64,000 bases of DNA from Hydrogenophaga sp. RAC07. GTDB lineage: Bacteria > Pseudomonadota > Gammaproteobacteria > Burkholderiales > Burkholderiaceae_C. Numbering within the stretch: position 1 is the first letter of the stretch; each line of letters begins with the position of its first letter. Shown in pieces: positions 41,533-64,000 of this stretch. A program made the position numbers and the translations under genes. The stretch spans positions 3,949,501 to 4,013,500 of the forward strand of contig NZ_CP016449.1 of the NCBI RefSeq assembly GCF_001713375.1. Reading direction: 5' to 3'. A model generated the notes under the pieces. The model did not search any database. It was not told the DNA's origin and was given only the letters and a program-made list of their open reading frames with translations.

Positions 41533-42870
41533 ATGAACAACGACAAACAGGGACCCGAACGTCTGGAGTGCGACGTTCTCGTGATCGGCGGAGGGCCCGC
41601 CGGCTCCACCGTTTCGCCACTGCTGGCCGAGAAGGGCCACCGCGTGGTGCTGCTGGAAAAGGCGCACCACCCGCGCTTTCACATCGGCGAGTCGCTGCTC
41701 CCGGCCAACCTGCCCTTGCTCGATCGCCTGGGCGTGGGCGAGGCGGTGCGCGCCATCGGGCAGTACAAACCGGGTGCCGAATTTGTCTCGCCGCACCACG
41801 ACCACACACAGACCTTCGAGTTCGCCGACGCCTGGGACAAGTCCATGCCGTTCGCCTACCAGGTCAAACGCGCCGAGTTCGACGAAATTCTCATCCGCAA
41901 CGCGCAGCGCAAGGGTGTGGATGTGCACGAGGGCTGCAAGGCGCGCTCGGTCGAGTTCCTGCCCGACGGCGGGGTGCGCGTGCATGCCGATCACGACGAT
42001 GGCCGCAGCACCGTGTGGGACGCGAAGTTTCTCGTGGACGCCTCTGGGCGCGACACCTTTCTGGCCTCGCGCTTCAAAATCAAGGAGCGCAACCCGCGCC
42101 ACAACAGCGCGGCGGTGTTCGGCCACTTTGCCAATGCGCGCCGCAACGACGGCGAGGCCGCGGGCAACATCACCATCTTCTGGTTTGACCACGGCTGGTT
42201 CTGGTTCATTCCGCTCAACGACGGCGCCACCAGCGTGGGCATGGTGACCTGGCCGTACCACATGAAAACGCGCGCGGGCCGCACGGTGGAGCAGTTCCTG
42301 ATGGACAACGTGGCCACCTGCGCCGGCCTGGCCGAGCGCCTGAAAGACGCGCACCTGGTCACACCGGTGGAAGCCACGGGCAACTTCTCCTACGCCGCGC
42401 AGCGCAACCACGGCCACAACTACCTGATGCTGGGCGACGCCTACACCTTCATCGACCCGGTGTTCTCCTCGGGCGTGTGGCTGGCCATGAGCGGTGGCGA
42501 GATCGGCGCGCAGACCATCGACACCTGCCTGCGCCACCCCGAGCAGGCGCGCGCCGCGCTCAAGCGTTTTGACCGCCAGAGCCGCCACGGGCCCAAGGCC
42601 TTTTCGTGGTTCATCTACCGCGTGACCAACCCCATCATGCGGGACTTCTTCATGGGGCCGCGCAACATCTTCCGCGTGAAAGAGGCGCTGCTCTCCACGC
42701 TGGCGGGCGACGTGTACGGCGGCGCGCCCATCGGGCGTTCGCTGCTCGCGTTCAAGGCCCTGTACTTCGCGGCCAACATCATGCAGCCCCGGCGCGCCTT
42801 CGCCGCCTGGCGCAACCGCCGCGCCAACATCCGGCCAGTGGACGACGCAGCCCTGGCCCAGACGCCGTGA
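41533..42870 (+). CDS. Flavin-dependent halogenase-like enzyme of the aryl-polyene cluster
   Basis: A 445-residue FAD enzyme. It has the FAD loop VIGGGPAGST, RFHIGESLLPANLP, Lys79 in QYKPGAEF, which matches the catalytic lysine of flavin halogenases, and WFWFIP at 222-227, the WxWxIP signature of halogenases. It thus carries both halogenase hallmarks, of the kind acting on carrier-bound phenolic or pyrrolic substrates. Xanthomonadins are brominated aryl polyenes, so ring halogenation is plausible; a hydroxylase role is the alternative. The ATG at 41533 gives the standard N-terminus. It overlaps the chorismatase start by GTGA. Confidence 0.85.
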   Translation: MNNDKQGPERLECDVLVIGGGPAGSTVSPLLAEKGHRVVLLEKAHHPRFHIGESLLPANLPLLDRLGVGEAVRAIGQYKPGAEFVSPHHDHTQTFEFADAWDKSMPFAYQVKRAEFDEILIRNAQRKGVDVHEGCKARSVEFLPDGGVRVHADHDDGRSTVWDAKFLVDASGRDTFLASRFKIKERNPRHNSAAVFGHFANARRNDGEAAGNITIFWFDHGWFWFIPLNDGATSVGMVTWPYHMKTRAGRTVEQFLMDNVATCAGLAERLKDAHLVTPVEATGNFSYAAQRNHGHNYLMLGDAYTFIDPVFSSGVWLAMSGGEIGAQTIDTCLRHPEQARAALKRFDRQSRHGPKAFSWFIYRVTNPIMRDFFMGPRNIFRVKEALLSTLAGDVYGGAPIGRSLLAFKALYFAANIMQPRRAFAAWRNRRANIRPVDDAALAQTP

Positions 42871-43868
42871 CGCTGCTGCACACGGCCTGGCCAACACCGG
42901 GCAACGCCGGCCAGGTGCTCGGCGGCGTGGTCATGGGAGATCTTTCCAGGGCGCCCGACGCAGACTGGCCGTTGCAACGCCTGCGCGTGCCCTTGCTGTC
43001 TGCCCGCGCGGCCTTTCTGCAGGAGGTCTGGCACACCGATGGTCCGGTGGCATCGGGCTGCAGCGACGGCATCCACTGGCGGCGCCACGCCGATGTTCTC
43101 TACGGCGTGGTGGAGTTGCCTGAAGACACCTGTGCTGCCACCGGCGGCACCACACCACTGCAAGCGGCGAGCCAGCTGGTTTACGAGCGCGTGTTCGGTC
43201 TGCTGCGCGCGCAAGGCCTGCCCCACCTGTGGCGGGTGTGGAACTACCTGGCCGACATCAACGGCGAATCGCATGGACTGGAGCGCTACCGCCAGTTCAA
43301 CCAGGGCCGATACAACGCCTTTGTGCAGGCGCAGCGCGACACCGGAGGCCAGGTGCCCGCGGCGTGCGCCATCGGCCTGGCGGCCGGCCCGCTCTCGGTG
43401 GCGTTTCTGGCGGGCACCTCGCCGCTGGTGCCGCTGGAGAACCCGCGCCAGGTGAGCGCCTGGAACTACCCGGCGCAATACGGGCCACGCGCACCCACGT
43501 TTTCGCGCGCGGCGCTGGCCTACCCACGCGGGAAAGAGGTGCTGTTCGTCTCGGGCACGGCCAGCATCGTGGGGCACGAGACGCTGCACGCAGGTGACGT
43601 GGCGGCGCAGTGCGTCGAGTCCGTGCGCAACATCGGGTGCATGGTGCAGGAGGCCAACCGCGTGGCGCGATCGGTCCGGCCGTTTTCGCTTGAAGGTTTG
43701 AGCCACCGTGTGTATGTGCGCCATGCGCAGGACGCCGACACCGTGCAGCACACGCTGGCGCCCTTGCTGCGCGGCGCAACCGTGGTCTGCGTGCAGGCCG
43801 ACATCTGCCGGGCCGATCTGCTGGTGGAGATCGAGTCGCAGGCGATCCACCCGATGCCTTGTCCATGA
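42867..43868 (+). CDS. xanB2: Chorismatase (3-hydroxybenzoate-forming, XanB2 type)
   Basis: A 333-residue chorismatase, the enzyme that hydrolyses chorismate to hydroxybenzoate plus pyruvate and supplies the aryl starter of xanthomonadin-type polyenes. Family strings are RVWNYLADINGESHGLERYRQFNQGR, SAWNYPAQYGPRAPTFSRA and FVSGTASIVGHETLHAGD, the last two bearing conserved active-site residues of the FkbO/Hyg5/XanB2 group. GTG at 42867 overlaps the preceding stop. Whether 3-hydroxybenzoate alone or also the 4-isomer is made cannot be read from sequence; the polyene context favours 3-hydroxybenzoate. Confidence 0.86.
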   Translation: MTLLHTAWPTPGNAGQVLGGVVMGDLSRAPDADWPLQRLRVPLLSARAAFLQEVWHTDGPVASGCSDGIHWRRHADVLYGVVELPEDTCAATGGTTPLQAASQLVYERVFGLLRAQGLPHLWRVWNYLADINGESHGLERYRQFNQGRYNAFVQAQRDTGGQVPAACAIGLAAGPLSVAFLAGTSPLVPLENPRQVSAWNYPAQYGPRAPTFSRAALAYPRGKEVLFVSGTASIVGHETLHAGDVAAQCVESVRNIGCMVQEANRVARSVRPFSLEGLSHRVYVRHAQDADTVQHTLAPLLRGATVVCVQADICRADLLVEIESQAIHPMPCP

Positions 43869-44638
43869 ACACCGAGGCCCGCCCCCGTTCGCTGCTGTGG
43901 GGCCTGTACGAACACCTCGCCATGGTCGTGGGCCTGAGCGCGCTGGCGGTTGTTTGCCTGAGCTGGTTGCCGCTGGCGCTGGTGTTGTACCGGGTGCTGC
44001 CCGGGCCGCTCGGCCGCTGGCTGGGGCGCCAGGCCATCATGCGGGGCTTTCGCCTCTACGTGGGTGTGTTGCGCACACTGTGCACCTGCCGCTTCGACCT
44101 CGGCGCGCTCGACACGCTGCGCGACCAGGGGCCCATGGTCATCGCGGCCAACCACCCTTCGCTGCTCGACGCGGTGCTCATCACCTCGCGTCTGCCCAAC
44201 GCGTTCTGCCTCATGAAGTCCAGCCTGATGGACAACCCGCTTTTTGGAGCTGGTGCGCGCATGGCGCGATACGTGCGCAACGACAACCTGCTCAGCGCCG
44301 TGCTGAGCTGCCGGCGCGAACTGCAACAAGGCGCGCAGCTCGTGATCTTTCCCGAAGGCACGCGCACGCTGGGCTATCCGACCAACCCGCTCAACCCGCT
44401 GTCGCGCTCCACCGCGCTGATCGCCACCCGCGCCGGCGTGCCGGTGCAGACCGTGATCATCGAATTCTCCAGCCCCTACGTGGGCAAGGGCTGGCCGCTG
44501 TGGCGCAAGCCCTCGCTGCCACTGACCTGCCGCGTGCGCCTGGGCCGGCGGTTCGACGCGCCACACGATGCGCGCGCCTTCACCACCGAGCTCGAAGCGT
44601 ACTTTCGCGCCGAACTCGCCTCACCGCCTGCCCCATGA
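43865..44638 (+). CDS. Lysophospholipid acyltransferase-family protein
   Basis: A 257-residue membrane acyltransferase of the PlsC kind. One or two N-terminal helices (VVGLSALAVVCLSWLPLALVLY) precede ANHPSLLDAV (the HX4D motif in NHPSLLD form) and IFPEGTRT. Aryl-polyene clusters carry such an enzyme, thought to attach the finished polyene to a lipid. ATG at 43865 overlaps the chorismatase stop (ATGA); a TTG six bases earlier is less likely. It overlaps the glycosyltransferase start in the same way. Confidence 0.87.
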   Translation: MNTEARPRSLLWGLYEHLAMVVGLSALAVVCLSWLPLALVLYRVLPGPLGRWLGRQAIMRGFRLYVGVLRTLCTCRFDLGALDTLRDQGPMVIAANHPSLLDAVLITSRLPNAFCLMKSSLMDNPLFGAGARMARYVRNDNLLSAVLSCRRELQQGAQLVIFPEGTRTLGYPTNPLNPLSRSTALIATRAGVPVQTVIIEFSSPYVGKGWPLWRKPSLPLTCRVRLGRRFDAPHDARAFTTELEAYFRAELASPPAP

Positions 44639-45393
44639 CCGCAACCAGCACCACCCATCTGGTCCTCATCCCCAGCTACAACCCCGGCCGCAAGGTGCTG
44701 GCCACGGTGCGCGCCGCGCGCGCGCGGTGGACACCGGTGTGGGTGGTGGTGGACGGCAGCAACGACGGCTCGGCCGACTGGCTGCAAGCCGAGGCCGCAC
44801 AAGACCCAGGCCTGCGGGTGATCGTGTTGCCACAGAACCAGGGCAAGGGCTCGGCCGTGCTGCACGGCATCACGCTGGCGGCGCAGGCCGGCTTCACGCA
44901 CGCGCTGACCATGGACTCCGACGGCCAGCACCCCGAGACGCTGATCCCCGACTTCATGGCGGCCTCTCAAGGCACACCTGCGGCCATGGTGCTGGGCAAA
45001 CCGGTGTTCGGCCCCGAAGCGCCCGCGCTGCGCGTGAACGGCCGCAAGGTCTCCAACGCCTGGGCCAACCTGGAAACGCTGGGCATGGGCATCGGTGATT
45101 CGCTCTACGGATTTCGCGTGTACCCGATCGCGCCGCTCATGCGCGTGATGCACGGCACCCGCTTCATGCGCCGCTTCGACTTCGACCCCGAGGCCGTGGT
45201 GCGCCTGTGCTGGGCCGGCGTGCGGCCCATCAACATCGACGCGCCGGTGCGCTACTTCTCGGCGCAGGAAGGCGGCGTGTCGCACTTCAAATACCTGCGC
45301 GACAACGTGTTGCTGACCTGGATGCACACGCGCCTGTTCATCGGGTTTGTGCTGCGCCTGCCACTGCTGCTGTGGCGGCGCCTGACGAACTGA
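44635..45393 (+). CDS. Family 2 glycosyltransferase of the aryl-polyene cluster
   Basis: A 252-residue GT-A glycosyltransferase: VLIPSYNPG at the start, VVVDGSNDGSADWL, NQGKGSAVLHG and the DSDGQHP metal-binding motif, with a hydrophobic C-terminus (LFIGFVLRLPLLLW) for membrane association. Homologues in aryl-polyene clusters probably link the polyene to a sugar-containing lipid anchor. ATG at 44635 overlaps the acyltransferase stop. It is the last gene of the left half of the pigment locus; unrelated DNA begins right after its stop. Confidence 0.87.
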   Translation: MTATSTTHLVLIPSYNPGRKVLATVRAARARWTPVWVVVDGSNDGSADWLQAEAAQDPGLRVIVLPQNQGKGSAVLHGITLAAQAGFTHALTMDSDGQHPETLIPDFMAASQGTPAAMVLGKPVFGPEAPALRVNGRKVSNAWANLETLGMGIGDSLYGFRVYPIAPLMRVMHGTRFMRRFDFDPEAVVRLCWAGVRPINIDAPVRYFSAQEGGVSHFKYLRDNVLLTWMHTRLFIGFVLRLPLLLWRRLTN

Positions 45394-45749
45394 GCAGGGG
45401 CAATGGCTCTTGGCCGCAAAGGTCGGGTGAATACTGAATGGAGTCGTTCAGACGCATCGCCTCGAAAGGCTGCCGCCTCCGTCAACGGTCATTCAGCCGA
45501 CCCCGTACGAAGGGCGGTTGAATCACCAAGACCGGGTACTCAACCGTTGGGTGCCAGGGTACTTGCTACGGCGCCTTTGCGAAAACAACGACTGCAGGAT
45601 CTGATGTCACATGACTTTCTGCGTGGAACCACAACACTTCATCTCGAAGACCAGGATGCGACTGCTGCACGAACCACATCACACGGGTGCCACGAAAACC
45701 CGGTTCGGCCTGCGCCGGTGAGCCAGTTGAGGGCGGTGATGAGACAGCC
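45394..45749. other. Gene-free left border of the inserted region
   Basis: No coding frame here is convincing on either strand. Base composition drops noticeably compared with the pigment genes. I see no tRNA, integrase remnant or clear attachment repeat. It marks the change from the pigment operon to accessory DNA. Confidence 0.5.
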
Positions 45750-47144
45750 TCATTGCAGCAGCTTGACCAGATTTCCCGCTGCTGCAGCTCCGTATTGTTT
45801 AAGGTCGGCTGAAGTCTGTGCCACCAGTGGGTGGTCGCGGTGCGCCCCCAGACCCGAGATGGGGTTGAGCCGAGTGCTCTTCGACCAGGCGACCACGGCG
45901 GGGTGAGACGCGCACGCGCGGTCGTGCGCCATCCGCGCGAGGTAGGTCGACAGGTAGTCGCGCGGCTCGTCCCAGTACCGGATCGGCGGGCACATGCGGT
46001 TCTTCTCGGCGGTATCTGCGATGGTGGCTTCGATCACGCCCAGCAGGGCGGCCGGGTAGCAGGCGAAGCTCCAGAACAGGGGTTGGATGGTCACCCGATC
46101 GGCTTCGAACACCGGCCGCAGCGCCGGGCGCGCCAGGCCGGCGGCAGCGCAGTGAACATGCAGCGTCCCGGGCCCGGTGGGCACAGAGCCACCGTCGAAC
46201 ACGATGCGGTCTCGCTCAATCCGGCGCACATGCCCCAGTCGGACCACGTCGTCGATCTGGCGCAACAAGGCCAACTCGGCTTCGCTGATCATGGCTCCGC
46301 GGCTCATGGTGGGCACGACCTTGGTGTCCACGCGCAGGAAGAGGCCCTCGGCCTCATGTCGGGCGAACACGTCATCCACGGACGTGCCCTGCGCCATGGC
46401 CTTGAGCTGCAAGCCGACCCCAGCATAGAAGTCGGGCAAACTTTCCCCCGGCTGGTAAAAGCGCCGGTTCAGCCACCAGCCTTCGCGCGGCCTGACCCAC
46501 TGGATGGCGCTCGCCGAAACGCCCTGCGAAAGCAGCCAAACGCAGGTGTCCAACGCAGTCTTGCCGGTACCGATGACCACGTAGCGCTCGGGCCGCTCTG
46601 TCAAACGAGCAATATCGCCCGCAGGCACGCAGCGCACGCCCTCGGCCACTTCAAAGGGCGGCGGGCTTGTCGCGGGTATGCGTCCTTCGAGATAGCCGGT
46701 GTCGACCAGCTTTCGCCGCACACGCACCTCTTGCACCGCACCGGTCAGGCGCGAGGTGATGAAGTGACGGCCATCAAGGCCGATGGTGTGATCGCTGCAG
46801 GGATGGTGGTGTACGCGCCCGGTCGGCAGGAAGTGCTGGTCCATCACCTGTGCGTAGTACGCGCGCAGTTCGTCCGCACTTGCCATCTCGTGAAATCCGA
46901 CATTGAGGCCGGATTGATTGACCGTATCGCGCCCCAAGGGCACGGACGACACACCGTAAAAAGCGGACGGCTGGTGCAGGCGCACGAAAGGATAGGCGTC
47001 GATCCAGTGTCCACCCGGCGCGTGGCGCCGGTCCACCAAAGTGACAGTCGCATCAGAGTGGCTGAGCAGGGCATCGGTGAACGCCATGCCGGCCGCTCCC
47101 GTACCAACCACGAGGTAATCAGTCTCGAGAGGTTCACGCCTCAT
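45750..47144 (-). CDS. FMO-like FAD/NAD(P)-binding oxidoreductase
   Basis: A 464-residue flavoprotein with two nucleotide-binding sites: TDYLVVGTGAAGMAFTDALL at the N-terminus for FAD and YVVIGTGKTALDTCVWLL near residue 190 for NAD(P)H. This is the two-Rossmann layout of flavin monooxygenases. GGHWIDAYPFVRLHQPS between them resembles the FMO/Baeyer-Villiger region, but the exact FMO fingerprint is not seen. The gene is 123 bases from the DUF4242 gene upstream on the same strand, and both are divergent from a LysR regulator. Substrate unknown. Confidence 0.78.
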   Translation of the reverse strand: MRREPLETDYLVVGTGAAGMAFTDALLSHSDATVTLVDRRHAPGGHWIDAYPFVRLHQPSAFYGVSSVPLGRDTVNQSGLNVGFHEMASADELRAYYAQVMDQHFLPTGRVHHHPCSDHTIGLDGRHFITSRLTGAVQEVRVRRKLVDTGYLEGRIPATSPPPFEVAEGVRCVPAGDIARLTERPERYVVIGTGKTALDTCVWLLSQGVSASAIQWVRPREGWWLNRRFYQPGESLPDFYAGVGLQLKAMAQGTSVDDVFARHEAEGLFLRVDTKVVPTMSRGAMISEAELALLRQIDDVVRLGHVRRIERDRIVFDGGSVPTGPGTLHVHCAAAGLARPALRPVFEADRVTIQPLFWSFACYPAALLGVIEATIADTAEKNRMCPPIRYWDEPRDYLSTYLARMAHDRACASHPAVVAWSKSTRLNPISGLGAHRDHPLVAQTSADLKQYGAAAAGNLVKLLQ

Positions 47145-47267
47145 CGCTCCTGAATTGGCATGTCCTCATGCGAAGTCGCACACGAGGCATTGAGAAATAG
47201 ATACAGCTCGGCAAAGCCTGCCAGGGGTCACCCTATCGGGCTTCTGGTTGCGAACAGCGATCGCTGT

Positions 47268-47552
47268 TCAGTTGTTCGCCGTTGTCGGATCAATGATCTG
47301 TGAAACCTCGGTGATCTTGGCCACCGGGATGCCGCTGAGCTCTGCATGCTGGCGGATGGTTGCCTCGCTGTCCGCGAGGTAGATACAGAAGGTGCTGTCG
47401 CCAGCAACGTAGCTGTGTTGCCACTGGATCGTCGCGCCAATCTTCGCGATGGCCTGGTTCGACGCCCGCGCGGCGCCGCACAGTTCGACGATCGACATGC
47501 CGCCGACCCCCGGGATATGCCGCTCGATCAGGAATCGTTTCAGTTGAGTCAT
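47268..47552 (-). CDS. DUF4242-like small protein
   Basis: A 94-residue protein resembling the DUF4242 family, small ferredoxin-like-fold domains sometimes described as nickel-binding. Visible features are KRFLIERHIPGVGG, QWQHSYVAGDSTFCIYLADSEATIRQHAELSGIP and ITEVSQIIDP. It is first on its strand after the divergent LysR promoter and precedes the flavin oxidoreductase, so the two may be co-regulated. The biochemical role is not known. Confidence 0.75.
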   Translation of the reverse strand: MTQLKRFLIERHIPGVGGMSIVELCGAARASNQAIAKIGATIQWQHSYVAGDSTFCIYLADSEATIRQHAELSGIPVAKITEVSQIIDPTTANN

Positions 47553-47614
47553 TGGTCTTCTCCTCGGTGGTTGATGTGGGATGGATCATCCGCACCAATA
47601 CACCACGGGGCAAG

Positions 47615-47650
47615 CTAAATAATCTTGATGCAACTAAAGAAAAGATTTAG
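47615..47650. promoter_or_regulatory. AT-rich inverted repeat in a divergent LysR promoter
   Basis: CTAAATAATCTT (47615-47626) is an imperfect inverse of AAAGATTTAG (47641-47650), in an AT-rich patch just before the LysR ATG at 47660 and 63 bases before the DUF4242 gene. The location suggests the binding site of the adjacent LysR regulator. Confidence 0.38.
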
Positions 47651-47659
47651 CCTTGGTCG

Positions 47660-48601: not shown

Positions 48602-48925
48602 TCGACGGGAAGCGTTAGAACGATGGCTGACACTTTCGTAGAAGACCTCTCCCCAGGCTCAGATCGCTTCTGACGGGTCTCGTATGTTCGTCCATGCCAT
48701 GGACCAGGTAAACCGTTCGGGAGACTGGGGGAAGCCCAGTGTGGCGACCCAAAAACGCCGGCTGCAGGCATCGGAACGAAGCACTGAAGCGGAAAACCCC
48801 GACCAACTCAATCCCCGCCGCCCTGTGGCCCTGCGGCTCAAAATGCTTCGGCCTCGACCGAAGCTTCTTGCGTGTCATTTGGTAGACAGTTGCGCTCCCA
48901 TCCACTCCAACTGCGAGCGCACACG
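48602..48925. other. Gene-free stretch with a small hairpin
   Basis: No credible gene. A hairpin GCTTCGG (48845-48851) / CCGAAGC (48858-48864) with a six-base loop lies 62 bases before the NIPSNAP start. It has no T run, so it may be a leader structure or operator rather than a terminator. Confidence 0.45.
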
Positions 48926-49264
48926 ATGTCTATCACCTGCTTCATCCACTACCAGATTGACCCCTTCCAGCGCAGCGCCTTCAAGTGCTACGCCGAAGCC
49001 TGGGGTCGTGTCATTCCGCGCTGCGGCGGCGAACTCATCGGCTATTTCCTGCCACACGAAGGCAGCAACGATGTTGCATGGGGCCTGATCGGTTTCGACG
49101 ACATGGCAGCTTACGAACGCTACCGGGCGGCGCTCAAGAACGACGCCGAGGGACGTGCCAACTTCGAGCGTGCGCAGTCGGAGCGCTTCATTCTTCGCGA
49201 GGAGCGGACTTGGCTTGAGGATGTGCATTCGACACGCAATGTCGCGCGCCAGGTGACGCCATGA
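48926..49264 (+). CDS. NIPSNAP-family protein
   Basis: A 112-residue ferredoxin-like (dimeric alpha-beta barrel) protein of the NIPSNAP family: [22 protein letters not shown] and [19 protein letters not shown] are typical. Family members have no agreed function but often sit with small monooxygenases. The ATG at 48926 is preferred to an upstream ATG at 48872, whose extra residues do not fit the family. Its stop overlaps the next start by four bases (ATGA). Confidence 0.85.
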
Positions 49265-49605: not shown

Positions 49606-49610
49606 CATCC

Positions 49611-50844: not shown

Positions 50845-50917
50845 ATGTAGCCTTTGTTGATGCAATCACACCCAGTTTAAACAGGTGCGGTTTGCCTGCA
50901 GAGGAGGTGGTTGAAAG

Positions 50918-53367: not shown

Positions 53368-53428
53368 CCAAAGAATCCATCAACCCAGTGGCTCAATCTT
53401 CGACGTGATCACTGGCTCAGTTGTGCTG

Positions 53429-55119: not shown

Positions 55120-55128
55120 AGGCTGCCC

Positions 55129-58100
55129 ATGCTGCGCTGGATGATCATCATCTACCTGGCCTTCACCATGGGCGTGGGTGCCCTGAAGTTGGTGCTGCAG
55201 ACCGGCAGCGCGGAGCGTGTGGCGCAGCTGGAAGTCCAGCAACAGGCTACGCGAAGGGCCACGCACGACGCCAATGCACTGCTGGTGCTGACCCACGAAT
55301 ACATGTTGCGCGGCACGGAGCGAGCGGCCAGCCAGTGGCAGATTGCGCACCGCGCACTGACCCAGGCCGTGGCCCAGGCCATACCGCTTGGGTCCAGCGA
55401 CGAAGATTTCGACGAGTTGCGAGACACCACGGCCAACCTGACAGCCATCTTCGGCAGCCTGCGTCGGGATGTGCCCGACCTGGCGCCGGAACTGGCTGGC
55501 GAGCGCCGCGCGATGCTGGTGGATCAGATCCTGTCCGAGACCCGGCTTGTCAGCGATCTGGCCTACCGGCGCGATGGCACCTTGTTCGAGCAAGTGCAGG
55601 CGGAAACCGCAAACCTGCGCCAACGTGACGGTCTGCTGAACTGGCTGTGGCTGGCTTCATCGCTTTTCCTGGCCTGGTTGCTGGTGGTGCGCGTGCTGCG
55701 CCCGGTGGCGATGTTGCAGGCTGCGGCGCAGTCGGTGCAGGCCGGCGACATGCAGGCCCGCTGCAACTACGAGAGCCGCGACGAGCTGGGTCAGGCGGCG
55801 GCCAGCTTCAACGCCATGACCGACACCCTGGCGCATGCCAATGAGCGCGTGGCGCTGGCTGTGGACAGTGCGGCCATGGGCGTGTGGGAGTACGACCTGC
55901 AAGCCGGCACCTTGCTCTGGGACGACCAGATGTTTGCTCTGTACGGACGGCGCCGCACCACTGATGCCGAGCCCTATTCACTGTGGAGCAGCAGCCTGCA
56001 TCCCGAAGACCGTGCACTCAGTGAACAAGCGTTGCGGGATGCCATCAAAGGCCAGAAACGGTTCGACACCCAGTTCCGCATTCTGCTGCCCGATGGCAGC
56101 GTGCGACACCTCAAGGCCGCCGCGCACGTGGTGCGTGATGCCACAGGCACTGCCCTGCGCATGATCGGCGTCAACACCGACATCACCGATCAGGTCACCA
56201 CCGCAGCCGCACTGCAGGAGCAGACGGCGTTGCTGCGGCGCGTCGGCCAATTGGCGTCAATTGGCGGGTGGCGCCTCGAGCTGAGCACGGGCAAGCTCTA
56301 TTGGGACGAGCAGACCAGGCGCATCCATGAGATGCCGACAGACTTTGTGCCAAACCTTGCCACTGCCATCAACTTCTACGTGCCCGAACACCGGGACATG
56401 ATCTCCAGCGCCGTGCAGCACGCTGTCGAAACCGGCGAGGGCTGGGATCTGGAGTTGCGCCTGGCAAACCCCACCGGCCGCGACATCTGGGTGCGCTCCT
56501 TGGGCGAAGTGGAATATGTCAACGGACAAGTCGCTTGCCTTGTCGGCGCCTTTCAGGACATCACCGAGCGGCAGCAGGCTGCGCAGGCGTTGCAGGATGC
56601 GAAAGCAGCGGCCGAGGCGGCCAGTGCGGCCAAGAGCGCATTCCTGGCCAACATGAGCCACGAGATCCGAACGCCATTGAATGCTGTGCTGGGCATGCAC
56701 AGGATGTTGCAGGACACCGATCTCAAGCCCAACCAGAGCGACCTGCTCGCCAAGGCCAACCATGCAGGACATGCGCTGATGGACATCATCAACGACGTGC
56801 TGGACCTGGCCAAGATCGAGGCGGGAGAACTGTCGATGCAAGCGCGGCCATTCCAGCCCAGGCAGTTGTTCGAAGAGCTGATGGACATTCATGGTGTCGT
56901 GGCACAGGCCAAGGGCTTGAAACTGAAGTTGCAAACTGCTGCAGATTTGCCCTTGTGGGTGGTCGGGGACCGCTTTCGCCTGCGACAGATACTCAGCAAC
57001 CTGTTGGGCAATGCGATCAAGTTCACGTCGAATGGCGCGGTGACCTTGTCGACGCGGGTGCGACGGGATGCCTCTCGACCATGGGTCGAGCTTGTGGTTC
57101 AGGACAGCGGTGTGGGCATTTCTCCGGAAGCGATGGTCCGCCTGTTCGCCCCCTTTGTGCAGGCCGATGAGAGCACCACAAGGCAGTTTGGAGGAACCGG
57201 GCTGGGGCTGTCCATCGTTCGCAACCTGGCGCGGATGATGGGCGGTGATGCCCAGGTCAGCAGCACGCTCGGGATGGGCAGCGAATTCCTGATTACCGTG
57301 CCGCTGGTCGAAGCGGACACACACATGGTCGCTCAGGTCACTCGGGCAAACCGACCGATCGAAGTGGCCTTGATGTGCGCAGACGAGGGCATCTGTCTCG
57401 ACCTGAGACAACGCCTCGCTGCACTGGGTTGGTCATGCTTCAGACCTGTGGAAGCAGAGACAGGTGAGCCGGATGTGCTTCTGATGGACGCTGCCCTGGG
57501 TGCCGAAGGAACTGTGAAGCTGCGCGAGATGGTGATTGCTTCGAACGCGCAGGGTCATGATCTGCCCGTCATCTTGCTCGGAGATTTGCAGGAACTGGAG
57601 GTGATGGAGACCTTGGCGCTGCCTCTGCACAGGGTGGTTCGAAAGCCGGCCGATATGTCCGGGATCTTCAATTCGGTGGTCGAGGTTCTGGCGCTGGGCG
57701 AAGATTCTCAGGACCGCATGATTGGAGCCACCCGCGCAATCGAGGGCGGTATCCGTTGGCTGCAGGGGGCGCACATCCTGGTGGTCGATGACAGCGAAAT
57801 CAACCTGGAGATTGCCGTGGCACTGCTCCGGCACCAAGGTGCCACATGCCACACCTGTGCCAACGGCCAGGAAGCGGCCGATTGGCTGATGCTTCATCCC
57901 GACGAAGTGGATGCCGTGCTCATGGACGTGCAGATGCCGGTGCTCGACGGTCTGGAAGCAGCCCGACTCATCAAATCGCATGCAGCACTCAAAAGCCTGC
58001 CGGTGATTGCCCTCACCGCAGGTGCACTCGACAGTGAACGGCTCAAGGCGAAAGCGGCCGGCATGGACGATTTCCTCACCAAGCCGTTGGCGCCTCTGGA

Positions 58101-58872
58101 GGTGGTGAAGCTGTTGCGCAGCAGGATCGGGCAGTACAGGGGCTCGGCACCACAAGTGGTACTGAGCCGGTCCGATGAAGGAGCCGTCGCTCTGGATCCA
58201 CCAGCGTCGCAACCCTGGCCTGAGATTCCGGGCATCGACACGAAGTTGGCCATGGCGTACTCGAGCAACAGTGTTGTGCTCTTCAACAGACTGCTCACGC
58301 TGGTGCAGAAGAACTACTCGGCCTGGGGGGTGACCTGGCTTGAACTGGCGCAACAGCAGGGCGCCGGTATCAAGGACGATCTGAGCGCCAGCCTGCACAA
58401 GTTGCGCGGCAGCGCAGGGACGTTGGGCGCTACCGAACTGGCTGCCGTGGCCAAGCATGCAGAAGGCGCCATTCTCGGTGGATCTGTCCCGCCCCTGGAC
58501 GTTGTACAGCAGGTGGCCAAGGTCCTTGACGACCTGTTGGCTCAGGTCGAAGTTCACATGGCCATGGCGATGCCGAAGGAGACGGCGGTGTTGGGTGCTG
58601 GTCCCTTGACCCAAGCTGGCCGGGACAAGCTCACCACGCTTGCCGAGCGCTTGTCCGAGGGTGACTTTGATGCCATTGATCTTGGCCTGTCGCTGCGGCT
58701 GGAGTTGGTCAGCCTGCTGGGACAGGAAGACGCCGAGGGACTTCTCCAACAAATTGATGACCTCGACTTCACTGCCGCCAACGCACTTCTCAGCAGCAGG
58801 CTGAAGCAACCTGACTTGGCTGCATCGCTGGATCAAACCAGCACAGGGAGTCCACATGTTGACCATGCATGA
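55129..58872 (+). CDS. Hybrid sensor histidine kinase with phosphorelay domains
   Basis: A 1,247-residue membrane kinase. Order: TM helix (~4-20); periplasmic sensor (~20-165); TM helix (~172-190); HAMP; two PAS domains (~245-485, [14 protein letters not shown] and [14 protein letters not shown]); kinase dimerisation with His511 in [11 protein letters not shown]; ATPase domain ([18 protein letters not shown]); a degenerate receiver (~742-860) lacking the acidic pair; a full receiver (Asp887/888, phospho-Asp933 in [11 protein letters not shown]); and an HPt domain with His1090 in [13 protein letters not shown] full internal relay is thus present, but no intact response regulator lies nearby. 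Co-transcribed with the binding protein. Confidence 0.93.
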
Positions 58873-58911
58873 CAACGTTGAGACATCCAGATTGACCGGT
58901 GCTGTGGTCGG

Positions 58912-59043
58912 TTGCTTCTGGTGAAGGACGACGATGTGCAGCTTGAGGGCGTGGCGCAATGGCGTCGCGATGATGGACTGATCGTGGATGAATGCTCGAA
59001 CGAGGAGCAAGCGGTGGCAACCGACGGCCTGCAACGCAGTTGA
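58912..59043 (+). pseudogene. Stub of an OmpR-type response regulator
   Basis: A 43-codon frame reading LLLVKDDDVQLEGVAQWRRD then DGLIVDECSNEEQAVATDG before TGA. It matches the first 40 residues of a QseB/OmpR-type receiver (LLVEDDxxLxxG...GxxVD...AxxxxATD), with the canonical Glu replaced by Lys and no downstream domain. It lies right after the hybrid kinase on the same strand, so it may be what is left of its partner regulator. The assignment rests on pattern only. Confidence 0.45.
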
Positions 59044-59252
59044 CGGCACCCCACTCGATAGCCGTCGTTGTTGCCTCAACGCTGCCGGTTGAGCAAATGA
59101 CGGCCTCGTGTCAGGGAGCGTGAACCCAGCTCGTGACCACGACCGACGGCTATCGCTGCACTGCAGCCCTCGAAGCGATCAACCTCCGATTTGGCGCACG
59201 CAGCGTTCGCGCTGGAACCACCGCAAGCCGAGACTGTGAAGCGCAAGCGTCT
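59044..59252. other. Gene-free right border of the inserted region
   Basis: No gene seen between the response-regulator stub and the fabG stop. It is the junction between accessory DNA and the right half of the pigment cluster. No attachment repeat matching the left border was found by eye. Confidence 0.45.
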
Positions 59253-59972
59253 TCAAGCCATTCCGCCGTTGATGGAGATGACCTGCCCACTCACATAAGC
59301 CGCCTTGTCCGACGCCAGAAACGCCACCAGCTCGGCCACCTCGTCCACCCGCCCCGCGCGCTGCATCGGCACCAGGCGTTTGATGGCCTCGGCGTCGAAG
59401 GCGCCTTCGATCATGTCGGTTTCGATGATGCCGGGCGCGACGGCATTGACGGTGATGCCGCGGCTGGCGAGTTCCAGGGCGAGGGATTTGCTGGCGGCGT
59501 GCAGCGCGCCCTTGGCGGCCGCGTAGTTCACCTGGCCGCGGTTGCCCATGACACCGGCGATGGACGAGATGGAGATGATGCGGCCCCAGCGTTTGCGGAT
59601 CATCGGCATGGTGAGCGGCTGCGTCACGTTGTAGAAGCCGTTGAGCGAGACGTCGACAACCCGGTCCCACTGCTCGCCGCTCATGCCGGGGAACACGGCG
59701 TCGTCGTGGATGCCTGCGTTGTTCACGAGGATCTGCACGGCACCCACCTCGGTCAACGCGGCGAGCGCGGCGGCGGTGGCGGCGCGGTCGGTCACGTCGA
59801 ACGCCACGGCTTCGGCGCTGCCGCCGGCTTCGCAGATGGCTTGTGCGGTGGCCTGGGCCTTGTCGATGGCGCGATGGGCGTGAACGATGACGTGGTGGCC
59901 GTCAGCGGCCAGGCGCTGGCAGATCGCCGCACCGATGCCGCCGCTGCCGCCGGTGACGAGGGCTCGTTTCAT
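59253..59972 (-). CDS. fabG: 3-Oxoacyl-ACP reductase (FabG-like) of the aryl-polyene cluster
   Basis: A 239-residue classical SDR: cofactor loop ALVTGGSGGIGAAICQ, LVNNAGI, ISISSIAG with the active-site Ser, and NYAAAKGALHAASKSLALELA with the Tyr-x3-Lys pair; it ends YVSGQVISINGGMA like FabG. It should reduce the 3-keto group during polyene chain growth. The ATG at 59972 follows AAGGACATCTC. It is the last gene of the minus-strand pigment operon, 13 bases after the dehydratase gene. Confidence 0.91.
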   Translation of the reverse strand: MKRALVTGGSGGIGAAICQRLAADGHHVIVHAHRAIDKAQATAQAICEAGGSAEAVAFDVTDRAATAAALAALTEVGAVQILVNNAGIHDDAVFPGMSGEQWDRVVDVSLNGFYNVTQPLTMPMIRKRWGRIISISSIAGVMGNRGQVNYAAAKGALHAASKSLALELASRGITVNAVAPGIIETDMIEGAFDAEAIKRLVPMQRAGRVDEVAELVAFLASDKAAYVSGQVISINGGMA

Positions 59973-59985: not shown

Positions 59986-60465
59986 TCAAAGCTGGTCGGC
60001 GTCGAGCACCACGGCCGCGCGCCCCTCGAGCAGGCAGCGTTCACCGTGGTGGAGCGTGAATCGGTAGAGCACGTGGTTCGCGTCGCCCGACAGGCGCTCG
60101 GCGCGCACGCTCAGCGGGCCGGGCAGGTCGTCCAGCCGCTCGGCGTGCAGGGTGACGCTGCGCACGCTGGTGAGGTAACCCTGGCGCGGTGCGGCGTCCG
60201 CGCCGGCCACCAGTGCGCCGTGCACCGCCATGGCCTGCGCCGCGTATTCGATGCCGTTGGATGCGCCCAGGCGCCCGGCGGCGCGCAGCGGGTGCGCCGG
60301 GTCGGTGTGGCTCAGCGCGTGGCAGACGATGTGATCGGCCGACCAGTCGGTGACCGCGTCGAGCAGGCACATACGGCCCTGGTGCGGAATGCGCGCGGCG
60401 ATCCAGGCGCAGTCCCGCTCGGCGTTCACTGGAGTCCCTTCGCCCTGCCCCTGTGCAGCGCTCAT
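59986..60465 (-). CDS. Hotdog-fold 3-hydroxyacyl-ACP dehydratase (ApeP-like)
   Basis: A 159-residue hotdog protein of the aryl-polyene dehydratase group: ARIPHQGRMCLLDAVTDWSADHIVCHA at the start, then ASNGIEYAAQAMAVHGAL, where His and Glu are the expected catalytic pair. It would remove water to form each trans double bond. ATG at 60465 overlaps the preceding gene stop (ATGA), which fixes the start; the longer open frame upstream is a shadow of the ketosynthase-like gene. Confidence 0.86.
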   Translation of the reverse strand: MSAAQGQGEGTPVNAERDCAWIAARIPHQGRMCLLDAVTDWSADHIVCHALSHTDPAHPLRAAGRLGASNGIEYAAQAMAVHGALVAGADAAPRQGYLTSVRSVTLHAERLDDLPGPLSVRAERLSGDANHVLYRFTLHHGERCLLEGRAAVVLDADQL

Positions 60466-61256
60466 GTGGGTTCGATCTGCACGTTCAACTGCAGCCCGGG
60501 CAAGTACTCCAGACACACCTCGCCGGCCCCACCCAGCGCCAGGCGCTCCAGCAGTGGCAACCCGCGCAACGCGGGGATGGCCGCGCGCAAGGCTTCCAGC
60601 GTGGGCTGCTGCAGCGGCCGCGCGGGTGCTGAGGTGGTCTGCACGGTGATGCGCGCGATGGCCTGCGGCGTGCGCACGGGCTCCAGCCGCAGCGCCACGC
60701 CGGCGCAGTCGGACATCGTGCGCTTGGCGAGCAGCGGCTCGGGGTATTCGCTGTCGTAGGCGAGCAGCAGGGTGGCTTGCTGGTCCAGCACCACCTGGCC
60801 CAGCGCGTCGATGAAGCCTGCACCGAAGCTGCCGTCGAACGCACACATGACCTGGCAGGGTGCCATCGATTTGGTGGCGATGCCCCAGTAACCGGCGGGC
60901 GCGTTGTGCACCGAGTTGTGAAAGCGCGTGGGCGAGACGTGGCGGTCGTCGGTGGCGAGCTGTTCGCACAGCGCGTGGCAGTTGTGGCCGTCGGCGCCGG
61001 ACGAGGTGAACACGGTGGCCAGGGTGGACACGTCGGCGCCGGCCGCGGCTTCCAGGCCAATGCCCAGCGTGAGTTTGATGACGCGGCTGGCGCGGCGGCG
61101 CTCGGCCGGCGGCAAGAGGGCGGGTGCGGGCAGCAACGAGGGCGCCGACACCCAGGGCTGTTCGCCACGCAGCACGGCGCGTGCGCCCGGCCAGTCGGGC
61201 AGGCCGGGGGCGATGAGGCCGATGCCGGTGATCCACGCGGTGAGCGGTGCGGTCAT
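60462..61256 (-). CDS. Beta-ketoacyl synthase-like chain-length factor
   Basis: A 264-residue truncated ketosynthase homologue. It keeps the start of the fold (WITGIGLIAPG, SRVIKLTLGIGLEAA, VFTSSGADGHNCHALCEQL) and HNAPAGYWGIATKSMAPCQVMCAFDGSFGAG, but lacks the TACSSS nucleophile motif and both catalytic histidine motifs. It matches the chain-length-factor proteins that pair with the true ketosynthase in aryl-polyene assembly. ATG at 61256 overlaps the ketosynthase stop, consistent with a heterodimer. Confidence 0.84.
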   Translation of the reverse strand: MTAPLTAWITGIGLIAPGLPDWPGARAVLRGEQPWVSAPSLLPAPALLPPAERRRASRVIKLTLGIGLEAAAGADVSTLATVFTSSGADGHNCHALCEQLATDDRHVSPTRFHNSVHNAPAGYWGIATKSMAPCQVMCAFDGSFGAGFIDALGQVVLDQQATLLLAYDSEYPEPLLAKRTMSDCAGVALRLEPVRTPQAIARITVQTTSAPARPLQQPTLEALRAAIPALRGLPLLERLALGGAGEVCLEYLPGLQLNVQIEPT

Positions 61257-62446
61257 GCGGTCAGCTTTCCGAACACCAGGCTGCAATTGCTGCCACCAAA
61301 ACCGAACGAGTTGGTGAGCGTGTGGCGCAGCGTGGCGGGTGCGCCGCGCAGTTGGTAGTTCATGCGCAGCGCGGGGTCGAGCGCGCGGGTGCCGGGGCTG
61401 CCGGGTGTGAGGCCGTCGACCAGCGCGATCGCGCACAACACGGCTTCCACCGCGCCAGCCGCGCCCAGCGTGTGGCCGGTAGCGCCCTTGGTGGACGAAC
61501 ACGGCACGCGCTCGCCGAACACGGCCATCACGGCCTTGCCTTCGGCGCTGTCGTTGGCGGGTGTGGCGGTGCCGTGCAGGTTGATGTAGTCGATGTCGCC
61601 TGCCGCCAGCGAGGCCGAACGCAGCGCGGCCTGCATGGCCATTTGCGCGCCCAGGCCCTCGGGGTGCGGGGCGGACATGTGGTACGCGTCGCTGGACTCG
61701 CCCGCGCCCAGCAGCCACACGGCGTCGGTGGGCGCATGCTCGGCGCGCTCCAGCAACGCATAGGCTGCGCCCTCGCCGATGGAGATGCCGTTGCGCCCCG
61801 CGTCACAAGGCCGGCAGGGGTCGCTGGAGGTGAGTTCGAGCGAGGCGAAGCCGTAAAGCGTGGTGAGGCAGAGCGAGTCGACTCCACCCACCAGGGCGGC
61901 GTCGATGGTGCCCAGTTCGAGCTGGCGCGCGGCAGCCGCGAACACCTTGGCGCTCGACGAGCACGCGGTGGAAATGGTGGCGGCCATGGCAGTGATGCCC
62001 AGGTGTTCGCGCAACAGTTCGGCCAGAGCGTAGGGGTTGTGGGTGGTGGCGTAGTTGAAGGCCTCGGGCAGCGCGCCGGTGGCCGCGTCGCGCTCGCGGT
62101 AGGCCAGCTCGGTCTGCAGGATGCCCGAGGTGCTGGTGCCCATGAACACGCCGACACGGTCCGCACCATGGCGCGCCACGGCGGCGCGCACGCGCTCCTC
62201 AAACCCGTCGGCCCGCAGCGCGAGCAGGGCCAGGCGGTGATTGCGGCACTCGAACGCGGCCAGCGCGGCGGGCAGCGGATGCGCGTCCACCCCGGGCACC
62301 TCGCCCACCCAGGTCGGCAGGTCCACGGTCTCGAAAGCGCAGGGCTGCAGGCCGCTGCGGTCTTCGCGCAGGGCCGTCCGGTGGGCGTCGAGCCCCACAC
62401 CCAGGCAGGTGGTGGCGGTGTAAGCGGAGAGCAGCAGGGGCTTCAC
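61253..62446 (-). CDS. Beta-ketoacyl-ACP synthase of the aryl-polyene cluster
   Basis: A 397-residue FabF/FabB-type condensing enzyme with the complete catalytic set: Cys162 in STACSSS, His291 in LHGTATPAND and His325 in GATGHTLGAAG. It should add malonyl units to the aryl starter. The start is GTG at 62446, overlapping the methyltransferase stop (GTGA); no better ATG is near. It is followed at once by the chain-length-factor-like partner. Confidence 0.92.
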   Translation of the reverse strand: MKPLLLSAYTATTCLGVGLDAHRTALREDRSGLQPCAFETVDLPTWVGEVPGVDAHPLPAALAAFECRNHRLALLALRADGFEERVRAAVARHGADRVGVFMGTSTSGILQTELAYRERDAATGALPEAFNYATTHNPYALAELLREHLGITAMAATISTACSSSAKVFAAAARQLELGTIDAALVGGVDSLCLTTLYGFASLELTSSDPCRPCDAGRNGISIGEGAAYALLERAEHAPTDAVWLLGAGESSDAYHMSAPHPEGLGAQMAMQAALRSASLAAGDIDYINLHGTATPANDSAEGKAVMAVFGERVPCSSTKGATGHTLGAAGAVEAVLCAIALVDGLTPGSPGTRALDPALRMNYQLRGAPATLRHTLTNSFGFGGSNCSLVFGKLTA

Positions 62447-63231
62447 GTCGGGGTGCTCAGAACAGGGTCGGGCATTGTCTCAAATGCTGCCACATCCCCT
62501 GACTTTTCACCGTGCGGCACCCGACACACCAGCATCACGTTGGCAAAGGGTTTGCGCCCGCTCATGGGCTCGGACTCCACCACAAAACCCAGGCGCTGCA
62601 GTTCGGACACCCAGTCGGCCAGCGTGCGGCAGTACAGGCGCGGCAGGCGGTGGCCACGCGTGTACGTCACGAGGCGGTCCACGCCGTTGCAGATGCGGTA
62701 GGTCAGGCCGGCGCCGGCGTCGCCCACGCGGGTGAGAAACACACCACCCGGGGGCAGGGCCTGGCGGATGCGCGCGAGCACGGCACGTTGTTGCTCGTGG
62801 CTGAAGTAGTGCAGCGCGTCCAGGATCAGGATGGCGTCGGGCTGGCCGAAGTCCACCATGTTCATGTCGCCCTGCTCCACCCGCACCACCGGGTGTTGTG
62901 GGCCGAAGGCGCGCGCGGCGCGCTCCACATCGCGCTGCATCAGCTCCACGCCACGCAGTTCCCGCGTCGGCGGTGGTGGCGCCCAGCCGGCGGGCCACTG
63001 GCCTTGCTCGTGCAGCCGGCGCGCGGCAAGCAGCCAGGAGAACAGGCTTCCCTGGCCACAGCCGAGGTCGAGGTAACGGCCGCCTTCGGGCAGCAGGCCA
63101 CGGCGCAGCACCTCGTGAAAGATGGTGTCATGGCCGAGCTTGCCGCGCGCGTAGTGGTAGGCAAAACGGCCGCTAGGCCTGAAGGTCTGGCTGGCCTCGT
63201 TGACCAGTTGGGCAAGGAATGGACGGCTCAT
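62443..63231 (-). CDS. SAM-dependent methyltransferase of the aryl-polyene cluster
   Basis: A 262-residue class I methyltransferase: GRYLDLGCGQGSLFSWLLAA (SAM site), VRVEQGDMNMVDFGQPDAILILDALHYFSHEQQ and LPPGGVFLTRVGD. In other aryl-polyene clusters a methyltransferase O-methylates the aryl ring, giving the methoxy head group; this is the likely role. ATG at 63231 overlaps the deacetylase stop (ATGA). Confidence 0.87.
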   Translation of the reverse strand: MSRPFLAQLVNEASQTFRPSGRFAYHYARGKLGHDTIFHEVLRRGLLPEGGRYLDLGCGQGSLFSWLLAARRLHEQGQWPAGWAPPPPTRELRGVELMQRDVERAARAFGPQHPVVRVEQGDMNMVDFGQPDAILILDALHYFSHEQQRAVLARIRQALPPGGVFLTRVGDAGAGLTYRICNGVDRLVTYTRGHRLPRLYCRTLADWVSELQRLGFVVESEPMSGRKPFANVMLVCRVPHGEKSGDVAAFETMPDPVLSTPT

Positions 63232-64000
63232 GAGGACAAGGCCTGGCTCAGGGTGACAGGCTGCAATTGGCGTTCGGCAACGGTCTGCAGCAGGCGCGGC
63301 AGCACCGCAAGAATCACGGGTTCACCGTTTCCTGTGCGCGCAGCGTGGCCATCGTGCATCAGCACGATGTCGCCCGCGCCGAGGCGGCGGGTGAGTCGCT
63401 GCAACACGCGCTCGGGGTCGCCGGTGCGGGTATCAAAGGCGCGGCGCGTCCAGGTGGCGAGCTGCAGGCCCAGACCGTGCAGCACCGGGTCGAGGAAGGG
63501 GTTGCGCAGGCCGGCGGTGGCGCGAAAGAAGCGCGGCGCTTCGCCGGTGATGTCGGCCAGCAGGGCCTGCGCGCGCGCAATGTCGCGCCGCATGGCGCCT
63601 GGGCCGAACAGCGAGAACGCGTTGCTGTGCGCAAAGCCGTGGTTCTCCACGCGGTGGCCGCGCTGCACGATGGCGCGGCACAAGGCGGGGTGCTGCTCTG
63701 CGATGCGGCCGATGCAGAAGAAGCTGGCCTTGACGTTGCATGCGTCGAGCACATCGAGCACACGCGGCGTGACCTCGGGGTCGGGCCCGTCGTCGATGGT
63801 GAGCGCGATCTCGCGCCGCTGCGCCGCGGCCGCGGGCAGGCGGGTGAGGTTGGGGCCGAGCAGGTGCGAACTGGGCCACAGGCCGGCACCGGCGAGCAGC
63901 GCGTGGTTGGCCACCAGGGCCCCGGCCGCCCACGGCCAGGCGGTGGGCACAGCGAGCGCGCCCAGCACAGCCGCGCCATGCAAGGCGGCGCTGGCGCTCA
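63228..64000 (-). CDS. Polysaccharide deacetylase-family protein, 5' end outside window
   Basis: A NodB-fold protein, at least 251 residues. Motifs seen are LTIDDGPDPEVTPRVLDVL (the catalytic and metal Asp pair), VENHGFAHSN (metal His), FFRATAGLRNPFLDP in place of the usual RxPYG loop, and GDIVLMHDGH. The frame remains open to the window edge; the first possible internal start is TTG at 63983, so the true start is probably beyond base 64000. A hydrophobic N-terminal part (WPWAAGALVANHALLAGAG) suggests a membrane anchor. It is co-transcribed with the polyene genes; its substrate is unknown. Confidence 0.85.
   Translation of the reverse strand, partial: SASAALHGAAVLGALAVPTAWPWAAGALVANHALLAGAGLWPSSHLLGPNLTRLPAAAAQRREIALTIDDGPDPEVTPRVLDVLDACNVKASFFCIGRIAEQHPALCRAIVQRGHRVENHGFAHSNAFSLFGPGAMRRDIARAQALLADITGEAPRFFRATAGLRNPFLDPVLHGLGLQLATWTRRAFDTRTGDPERVLQRLTRRLGAGDIVLMHDGHAARTGNGEPVILAVLPRLLQTVAERQLQPVTLSQALSS

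What the first reader, a model, noticed from the sequence alone, without database searches (positions are those of the whole stretch)
41533..64000. Aryl-polyene pigment cluster split into two convergent operons by ~14 kb of unrelated DNA
The left half (halogenase-like, chorismatase, acyltransferase, glycosyltransferase) and the right half (deacetylase, methyltransferase, ketosynthase, chain-length factor, dehydratase, FabG) together make most of a xanthomonadin/aryl-polyene pathway. Junctions inside each half are nearly all ATGA or GTGA overlaps. The region between (45394-59252) has unrelated function, lower GC, an IS and gene stubs. Either the two operons were once adjacent and convergent and the gap collected foreign DNA, or they were brought together.
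Basis: partly seen in the sequence, partly recalled or inferred. Interest (0 to 1): 0.75.

Follow-up and report, generated by a model that had tools for sequence, protein, structure and literature searches.

The report
Foreign DNA inside a pigment cluster
In this Hydrogenophaga genome a known type of yellow-pigment gene cluster, made of two operons that run towards each other, has about 14 kb of mixed unrelated DNA at the meeting point where its nearest relative carries one small transporter gene; this is a clear case of ordinary genome turnover, not a new system.

Summary
The left operon (41533-45393) and the right operon (59253 to beyond 64000) are convergent, 13,859 bp apart, and together hold most of the genes of the published arcuflavin/xanthomonadin-type cluster of Azoarcus BH72. 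Of 80 named loci fetched by the glycosyltransferase, 63 have fabG convergent downstream, 4-7,971 bp away (median 2,110); one more, Polaromonas A23, has an independent 14.6 kb gap. The window's sister by cluster genes (G031) has only an antiporter gene (arcG-like) between the two. So the operons were neighbours, the antiporter was lost (no match in this genome) and foreign DNA took its place. The insert is a mosaic: an oxidoreductase gene, a regulator/monooxygenase block, an IS21 element, a duplicated scrap of this genome and a truncated receptor-kinase operon. A control tempers the 'hotspot' idea: three other convergent junctions gain inserts about as often in congeners (3 of 25 over 1 kb, against 4 of 20 here; Fisher p = 0.68). 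Verdict: insertion reading supported, pathway known, biology ordinary.

The parts
41533..42870 (+). halogenase-like flavoenzyme (arcA-like), left operon
   Evidence: PF04820 and PF01494
42867..43868 (+). chorismatase (arcB-like); GTGA overlap with the gene before it
   Evidence: PF21168; PDB FkbO 4bps_A E 2.9e-47; TIGR04444 hit below its curated cut-off; junction
43865..44638 (+). acyltransferase (arcD-like); ATGA overlap
   Evidence: PF01553; junction
44635..45393 (+). GT2 glycosyltransferase (arcE-like); last gene of the left operon here
   Evidence: PF00535; 92% identity to G012
45394..59252 (.). the insert, 13,859 bp between the two stop codons; absent in sister G031, which has an antiporter gene here
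   Evidence: window-to-G031 DNA match stops at 45393 and resumes at 59253; G031 order
45727..47258 (-). insert piece 1: NAD(P)/FAD-binding oxidoreductase gene (45750-47144)
   Evidence: 89% to G032:C147; NAD_binding_8
47268..50300 (.). insert piece 2: SCO4226-like gene (-), LysR regulator, NIPSNAP, ABM monooxygenase, HTH_20 regulator (+); 48926-50221 is 72-73% like blocks in congeners
50918..53441 (+). IS21-family element with istA and istB; imperfect inverted ends
   Evidence: 79% to G018:C146
53442..53863 (.). insert piece: scrap 92% like another place in this genome (C1:4621695-4622116)
54003..59020 (+). insert piece: NMT1-type receptor gene (54043-55119), hybrid histidine kinase (55129-58872) and the start of a following gene; 83% like an own paralogous operon and one in G017
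58857..59020 (+). gene stub: start of the receiver/kinase gene that follows the kinase in the paralogous operon (L109 11577-12776); cut at about 59020
   Evidence: start inferred from the alignment
59253..59972 (-). FabG-type reductase (arcH-like); last gene of the right operon
   Evidence: PF00106; NF004200 above cut-off
59986..60465 (-). dehydratase (arcI-like)
   Evidence: 6qsr_B by profile
60462..61256 (-). chain-length-factor-like protein (arcJ-like)
   Evidence: PF13723; PDB 7f28_A and 6qsp_B
61253..62446 (-). ketosynthase (arcK-like)
   Evidence: PF00109/PF02801; NF006618 above cut-off
62443..63231 (-). methyltransferase (arcM-like)
   Evidence: PF13649
63228..64000 (-). polysaccharide deacetylase (arcN-like), cut by the window end; complete in L061 3229-4290
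   Evidence: PF01522

Best explanation
This is an arcuflavin/xanthomonadin-type aryl-polyene cluster made of two tail-to-tail operons, a layout widespread in Betaproteobacteria. In this Hydrogenophaga lineage the antiporter gene (arcG-like) that closed the left operon was lost, and 13.9 kb of unrelated DNA from several sources built up between the two outer stop codons, with an IS21 element in the middle. Insertion there breaks no reading frame and cuts neither operon, so it was tolerated. Shown: the genes, the order in relatives, the sister with an antiporter and no insert, the mosaic make-up, no antiporter match in this genome. Inferred: that both operons are still expressed and pigment is still made, that tolerance rather than a dedicated integration system explains the site, and the order of the events.
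For: 63 of 80 named loci have fabG convergent downstream of the glycosyltransferase, gap 4-7,971 bp. The window groups with G031 with support 0.983 in a tree of five cluster proteins; G031 has the antiporter 7 bp after the glycosyltransferase stop, its end overlapping fabG. Window-to-G031 homology breaks at 45393 and resumes at 59253. The G031 antiporter finds no match in the window's genome, while the three genomes known to have the gene (G031, G012, G003) match at 1e-214 or better. Insert pieces have different nearest relatives. Lower GC and GC3 in the insert.
Against: The tree is of cluster genes, not of species, and an inner branch has support 0.153. Two other members of the nine-member clade (G032, SURF_20) also lack the antiporter at this place, so how often it was lost is open. 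The DNA search of the insert scored only 5 candidates per genome and its list was cut, so nearer relatives of the pieces may exist. No expression or pigment data.
Confidence: 0.87

Rival explanations
1. The two operons were brought together in this lineage by rearrangement, each with some flanking DNA.
For: Arrangements do change elsewhere: in Azoarcus BH72 the pathway lies in two unlinked loci (PMC3949708); L131 and L137 have the right operon on the other side or turned round; L168, L179 and L182 have fabG on the other side of the glycosyltransferase.
Against: The convergent pair is the common order (63 of 80), including the sister and the rest of the nine-member clade.
Confidence: 0.04
2. 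The junction is a special integration hotspot, used more than other convergent junctions.
For: Cargo differs from species to species: restriction-modification-type genes in L113 and L125, isochorismatase plus RibD_C in L117, GntR/TctC/DHDPS genes in L121, kinases in L149 and L187; 14.6 kb in Polaromonas A23. 69 of 81 gap ORF families occur in one locus only (the ORF set includes shadow ORFs, so this is an upper figure).
Against: Three control convergent pairs in congeners: 3 of 25 gaps over 1 kb and 6 of 25 over 500 bp, against 4 of 20 and 6 of 20 here with the window left out; p = 0.68 and 0.74. No integration gene or RNA target found.
Confidence: 0.15
3. The whole 13.9 kb arrived in one step, for instance as one island or between IS copies, rather than piece by piece.
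For: One IS21 element lies in the middle, and two pieces (45727-47258, 50675-50912) match the same G032 contig.
Against: Those two pieces are not collinear with that contig; others match other genomes or other places in this genome. The repeats listed do not frame the whole (20 of 27 direct families shown).
Confidence: 0.25
4. Assembly artefact.
For: None beyond the mosaic look.
Against: Single-contig genome, completeness 100, contamination 0.49; the long matches to the pieces elsewhere are 72-92% alike, not identical repeats that mislead an assembler; both edges sit at stop codons.
Confidence: 0.02

Closest known systems
arc (arcuflavin) gene clusters of Azoarcus sp. BH72 (PMC3949708; section 18 with Table 1 read; passages)
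   Same: Halogenase, chorismatase, acyltransferase, glycosyltransferase on one side and reductase, dehydratase, CLF-like protein, ketosynthase, methyltransferase, deacetylase, exporter, AMP-ligase, ACP on the other. In the published table arcF and arcG (antiporter) stand between arcE (glycosyltransferase) and arcH (reductase), the same junction.
   Different: In BH72 the genes lie in two unlinked loci; here in one stretch. Here no antiporter and no MipA gene; 13.9 kb of other DNA at the junction. Gene strands were not given in the parts that I saw. LolA not identified here.
Xanthomonadin-like cluster of Lysobacter enzymogenes (PMC3691225; passages)
   Same: KS with an unusual CLF-like partner, reductase, two dehydratases, ACP, exporters; pigment depends on KS, CLF-like protein, ACP and reductase.
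   Different: Seventeen clustered ORFs without the halogenase gene (absent there by the paper's figure legend).
E. coli CFT073 ape cluster (PMC8253772; passages)
   Same: KS, CLF, dehydratases, reductase, ACPs, acyl-ACP synthetase, glycosyltransferase/acyltransferase, transporter, methyltransferase.
   Different: All genes in one orientation; no halogenase or chorismatase in its gene table.
Gap of the same cluster in sister G031 (locus L062)
   Same: Same two operons, convergent, 84-87% DNA identity on both sides.
   Different: Antiporter gene between them instead of the 13.9 kb insert.

Membership tests
arcuflavin/xanthomonadin-type aryl-polyene cluster | KS with CLF-like partner, FabG-type reductase and dehydratase | tested here: met
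arcuflavin/xanthomonadin-type aryl-polyene cluster | XanB2-type chorismatase that supplies hydroxybenzoate | tested here: met
   PF21168, FkbO structure; NCBIfam TIGR04444 scores 241 against a cut-off of 325, so the subtype and product are open
arcuflavin/xanthomonadin-type aryl-polyene cluster | halogenase-like flavoenzyme | tested here: met
   PF04820; no NCBIfam halogenase model above its cut-off; halogenation not testable
arcuflavin/xanthomonadin-type aryl-polyene cluster | AMP-ligase, ACPs and MMPL-type exporter in the cluster | tested here: met
   L061
arcuflavin/xanthomonadin-type aryl-polyene cluster | glycosyltransferase and acyltransferase | tested here: met
   second acyltransferase in L061
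arcuflavin/xanthomonadin-type aryl-polyene cluster | LolA-like carrier protein | tested here: inconclusive
   L061:7011-8066 and L061:8063-8440 gave no Pfam or NCBIfam hit
arcuflavin/xanthomonadin-type aryl-polyene cluster | arcG antiporter (accessory: on the glycosyltransferase strand in 34 of 63 convergent loci) | tested here: not met
   not treated as defining, since 21 of the 63 loci have no antiporter match in the gap
arcuflavin/xanthomonadin-type aryl-polyene cluster | yellow aryl-polyene pigment made | not testable with these tools
   needs culture and HPLC-MS
mobile integrating element (the insert as a whole) | own integrase or a tRNA/RNA target at an edge | tested here: not met
   only IS21 transposase genes among the insert ORFs scanned; no Rfam match in 41000-64000; ARAGORN's tRNA-Ser lies inside the kinase ORF
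IS21 family | istA and istB with terminal inverted repeats | tested here: met
   arms 50918-50944 and 53413-53439, 78% complementary. No direct repeat of the target is evident by eye in the flanks

The most novel reading that the evidence does not exclude
The meeting point of the two operons is a long-lived exchange slot in betaproteobacterial aryl-polyene clusters, where the arcG-type antiporter has repeatedly been swapped for unrelated cargo (restriction-modification genes, metabolic blocks, kinases) at a rate above that of other convergent junctions.
Probability: 0.2. Interest if true: 0.5.

Novelty: new member of a known kind. Interest (0 to 1): 0.28.

Why it matters
It is a well-polarised example of a biosynthetic cluster that keeps two operons intact while the DNA between them turns over, and it warns that a cluster split by 14 kb can still be one pathway. 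In two other species the same junction carries restriction-modification-type genes (L113, L125), so boundary software may take cargo for pathway genes. It also shows that an antiporter that follows the glycosyltransferase in 39 of 80 loci can be lost from a genome.

Tried and rejected
Looked for a remnant of the antiporter in the window and the fetched right flank: nothing above chance. Looked for repeats framing the insert: short pairs and the IS21 ends only. ARAGORN's tRNA-Ser at 55662-55754 lies inside the kinase ORF and has no Rfam support; rejected as an integration target. The promoter/terminator scan found 0 promoter-like sites (shuffles 1.9) and 9 terminator-like sites (shuffles 9.8). 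A hotspot above background was tested with convergent control pairs and not supported; pairs c4, c5 and c6 gave no usable case, and two rearranged cases of c2 (L208, L211) were left out. The control pairs were picked because they are tight in the window's genome, and test and control congeners overlap only in part. A plasmid search with the glycosyltransferase gave 72% identity at best.

Literature: 'aryl polyene' with 'Hydrogenophaga' gave no paper, but one Hydrogenophaga genome paper writes 'Arylpolyene' and reports such a region (PMC12993520, passages), so the empty search means little. Searches on convergent genes and insertion sites, on conserved order in Betaproteobacteria and on antiporters with these pigments were seen as listings; only PMC3949708 was on point. 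No claim is made that the insert or the slot is unreported.

Mistakes: one search read an alignment row as the window, so its queries from the window were wrong; replaced (only its antiporter, UbiE and glycosyltransferase rows are used). The CLF reference 60462-61257 is out of frame; the right one is 60462-61256. The scripts stopped on errors; one of the proteins meant for them was scanned, the rest were not pursued. fabG matches under 48% identity were dropped before counting.
Full report
WHERE IT IS. The window is base 3949501-4013500 of a single-contig genome of 4.67 Mb.

THE TWO OPERONS. The weakest, the dehydratase, is supported by a profile of 16 homologues that hits a solved FabA/FabZ-type dehydratase, 6qsr_B; the CLF hits 7f28_A and 6qsp_B. 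Seven of eight internal junctions are 4-base overlaps. To the right of the window the operon goes on with the rest of the deacetylase, a small hydrolase-like ORF, an MMPL exporter, an AMP-ligase, two ACPs and a second KS, with a lipid A-type acyltransferase and a FabA/ApeI-like dehydratase between exporter and ligase. No LolA-like gene was identified.

WHAT KIND OF CLUSTER. The best match in print that I found is the arcuflavin cluster of Azoarcus BH72 (PMC3949708; section 18 with Table 1 read; passages). One locus there lists halogenase, chorismatase, MipA, acyltransferase, glycosyltransferase, arcF, arcG (Na+/H+ antiporter), reductase, dehydratase, CLF-like protein and KS; the other, unlinked, lists methyltransferase, deacetylase, exporter, LolA, acyltransferase, dehydratase, AMP-ligase and ACP. 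The window and its right flank hold nearly all of these in one stretch. The parts of the paper that I saw do not give gene strands.

WHAT RELATIVES SHOW. The chorismatase matched 25 of 60 searched genomes and the methyltransferase 27 of 60, some of these weakly or in part. I fetched a choice of these regions and compared them. In 63 of 80 fabG lies convergent downstream within the fetched stretch; gap 4-7,971 bp, median 2,110, measured between tblastn match ends. Of the other 17, nine end within about 5.3 kb of the glycosyltransferase; L168, L179 and L182 have fabG on the other side; L131 has the right operon on the other side and L137 has it turned round; L190 has the next genes but no fabG match; L163 was not resolved; and L184 (Polaromonas A23), extended along its contig, is convergent with a gap of 14.6 kb. 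The genes in that gap were read as ORFs only. So the window's 13,859 bp is extreme but not unique.

WHAT NORMALLY LIES BETWEEN. In 34 of the 63 loci an antiporter gene (PF00999) follows on the glycosyltransferase strand; in 8 an antiporter-like gene lies on the fabG strand (seven at 28-30% identity, L148 at 75%; one of the distant ones, L176, checked by Pfam); 21 have none. Over all 80 loci 39 have the antiporter after the glycosyltransferase; in 32 of these it starts within 60 bp of the glycosyltransferase or of an intervening UbiE-like gene, so it looks like a member of the left operon. In L069 and L070 the two outer genes meet tail to tail with nothing between.

POLARITY. A FastTree of five concatenated cluster proteins (73 rows; duplicates, loci without the glycosyltransferase and loci with fewer than four of the five genes were dropped) puts the window with G031, support 0.983, inside a nine-member clade with support 1.0; an inner branch has only 0.153. 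G031 has the antiporter 7 bp after the glycosyltransferase stop, and its end overlaps fabG. Six of the nine carry the antiporter there; the window, G032 and SURF_20 do not. With the G031 antiporter as query, G031, G012 and G003 match at 1e-214 or better, G032 only a 30% relative elsewhere, and the window's genome and the SURF_20 genome not at all. The simplest account is loss of the antiporter and insertion after the split from G031; how many times the antiporter was lost in the clade is open.

WHAT THE INSERT IS MADE OF. Window-to-G031 homology stops at 45393 and resumes at 59253. The insert was searched as DNA in the window's own genome and 59 others (five candidates scored per genome, list cut). 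45727-47258 is 89% like G032:C147. 48926-50221 is 72-73% like blocks of congeners. 50675-50912 is 91% like another part of G032:C147. 50918-53441 is an IS21 element, 79% like one in G018. 53442-53863 is 92% like another place in the window's own genome. 54003-59020 is 83% like an own paralogous operon and one in G017, and ends inside the gene after the kinase. 59025-59173 resembles short stretches in several congeners (best 77%). Whether these came one by one is not shown; their different nearest relatives favour it. Against the 109 fetched cluster loci the insert gives only short matches, all within the kinase-coding part.

IS THE SITE SPECIAL? Within the cluster, in loci with the convergent pair, the codirectional junctions acylT-GT, fabG-dh, dh-clf, clf-ks and hal-chor never exceed 320 bp (38-63 loci each), while ks-mt (7 of 27) and mt-deac (2 of 26) sometimes exceed 500 bp, and chor-acylT does in 24 of 45, where a MipA gene often sits. 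The convergent junction exceeds 1 kb in 46 of 63, but much of that is the recurrent antiporter and UbiE genes. A fairer control: three other convergent pairs of the window, looked up in the 15 congeners found, gave 25 usable cases, 3 with over 1 kb and 6 with over 500 bp. At the pigment junction, loci of Hydrogenophaga and SURF_20 with over 1 kb of DNA not accounted for by four recurrent genes are 4 of 20 with the window left out, and 6 of 20 over 500 bp; Fisher p = 0.68 and 0.74; with the window included 5 of 21, p = 0.44. Numbers are small. The data fit the plain view that convergent ends tolerate insertion and do not show a special hotspot; they do not exclude one.

VERDICT. Observation right, insertion reading right, cluster type known. 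The additions are the polarised loss of the arcG-type antiporter, the mosaic make-up of the insert, the independent 14.6 kb case in Polaromonas, and a control that keeps the claim modest.

Noticed in passing
window 27390-29693, 45727-47258, 50675-50912: Three pieces, one of them outside the insert, are 89-91% like parts of one 11 kb stretch of a G032 contig (C147:28740-40143), not in the same order. They may share a source.
   Followed up: partly
window 27328-29813 and 33959-37816: Two further stretches of the window (2.5 and 3.9 kb) are missing from the G031 stretch that is otherwise collinear with it, so the region has more than one insertion or deletion between the sisters.
   Followed up: no
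window 59025-59173: About 150 bp at the right end of the insert with 73-77% matches at places in at least five congeners (G004, G005, G007, G024, G035); nature unknown.
   Followed up: no
L072, L073, L075, L077, L079, L080, L083: In seven congeners (G024, G015, G026, G034, G005, G007, G021) the chorismatase gene lies away from the other cluster genes; in L071, L074 and L078 a MipA-type gene sits between halogenase and acyltransferase instead.
   Followed up: partly
L113 11752-14143: The junction in Comamonadaceae SURF_20 holds a C-5 DNA methylase and a 'methylase-associated X1' gene, possibly a restriction-modification pair.
   Followed up: no
L125 12896-17178: The junction in Dechloromonas denitrificans ATCC BAA-841 holds HsdR-N-type, YhcG/DUF1016 and HsdM genes.
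   Followed up: no
L113, L117, L126, L118: The methyltransferase gene (arcM-like) is not matched between KS and deacetylase in these loci, though present in the window.
   Followed up: no
L124, L144, L148, L149, L187: Histidine-kinase genes or kinase-like matches lie in the same junction in these loci; the likeness to the window's kinase is limited to short DNA pieces.
   Followed up: no
window 55662-55754: ARAGORN calls a tRNA-Ser(gct) inside the kinase ORF; no Rfam match, probably spurious.
   Followed up: yes
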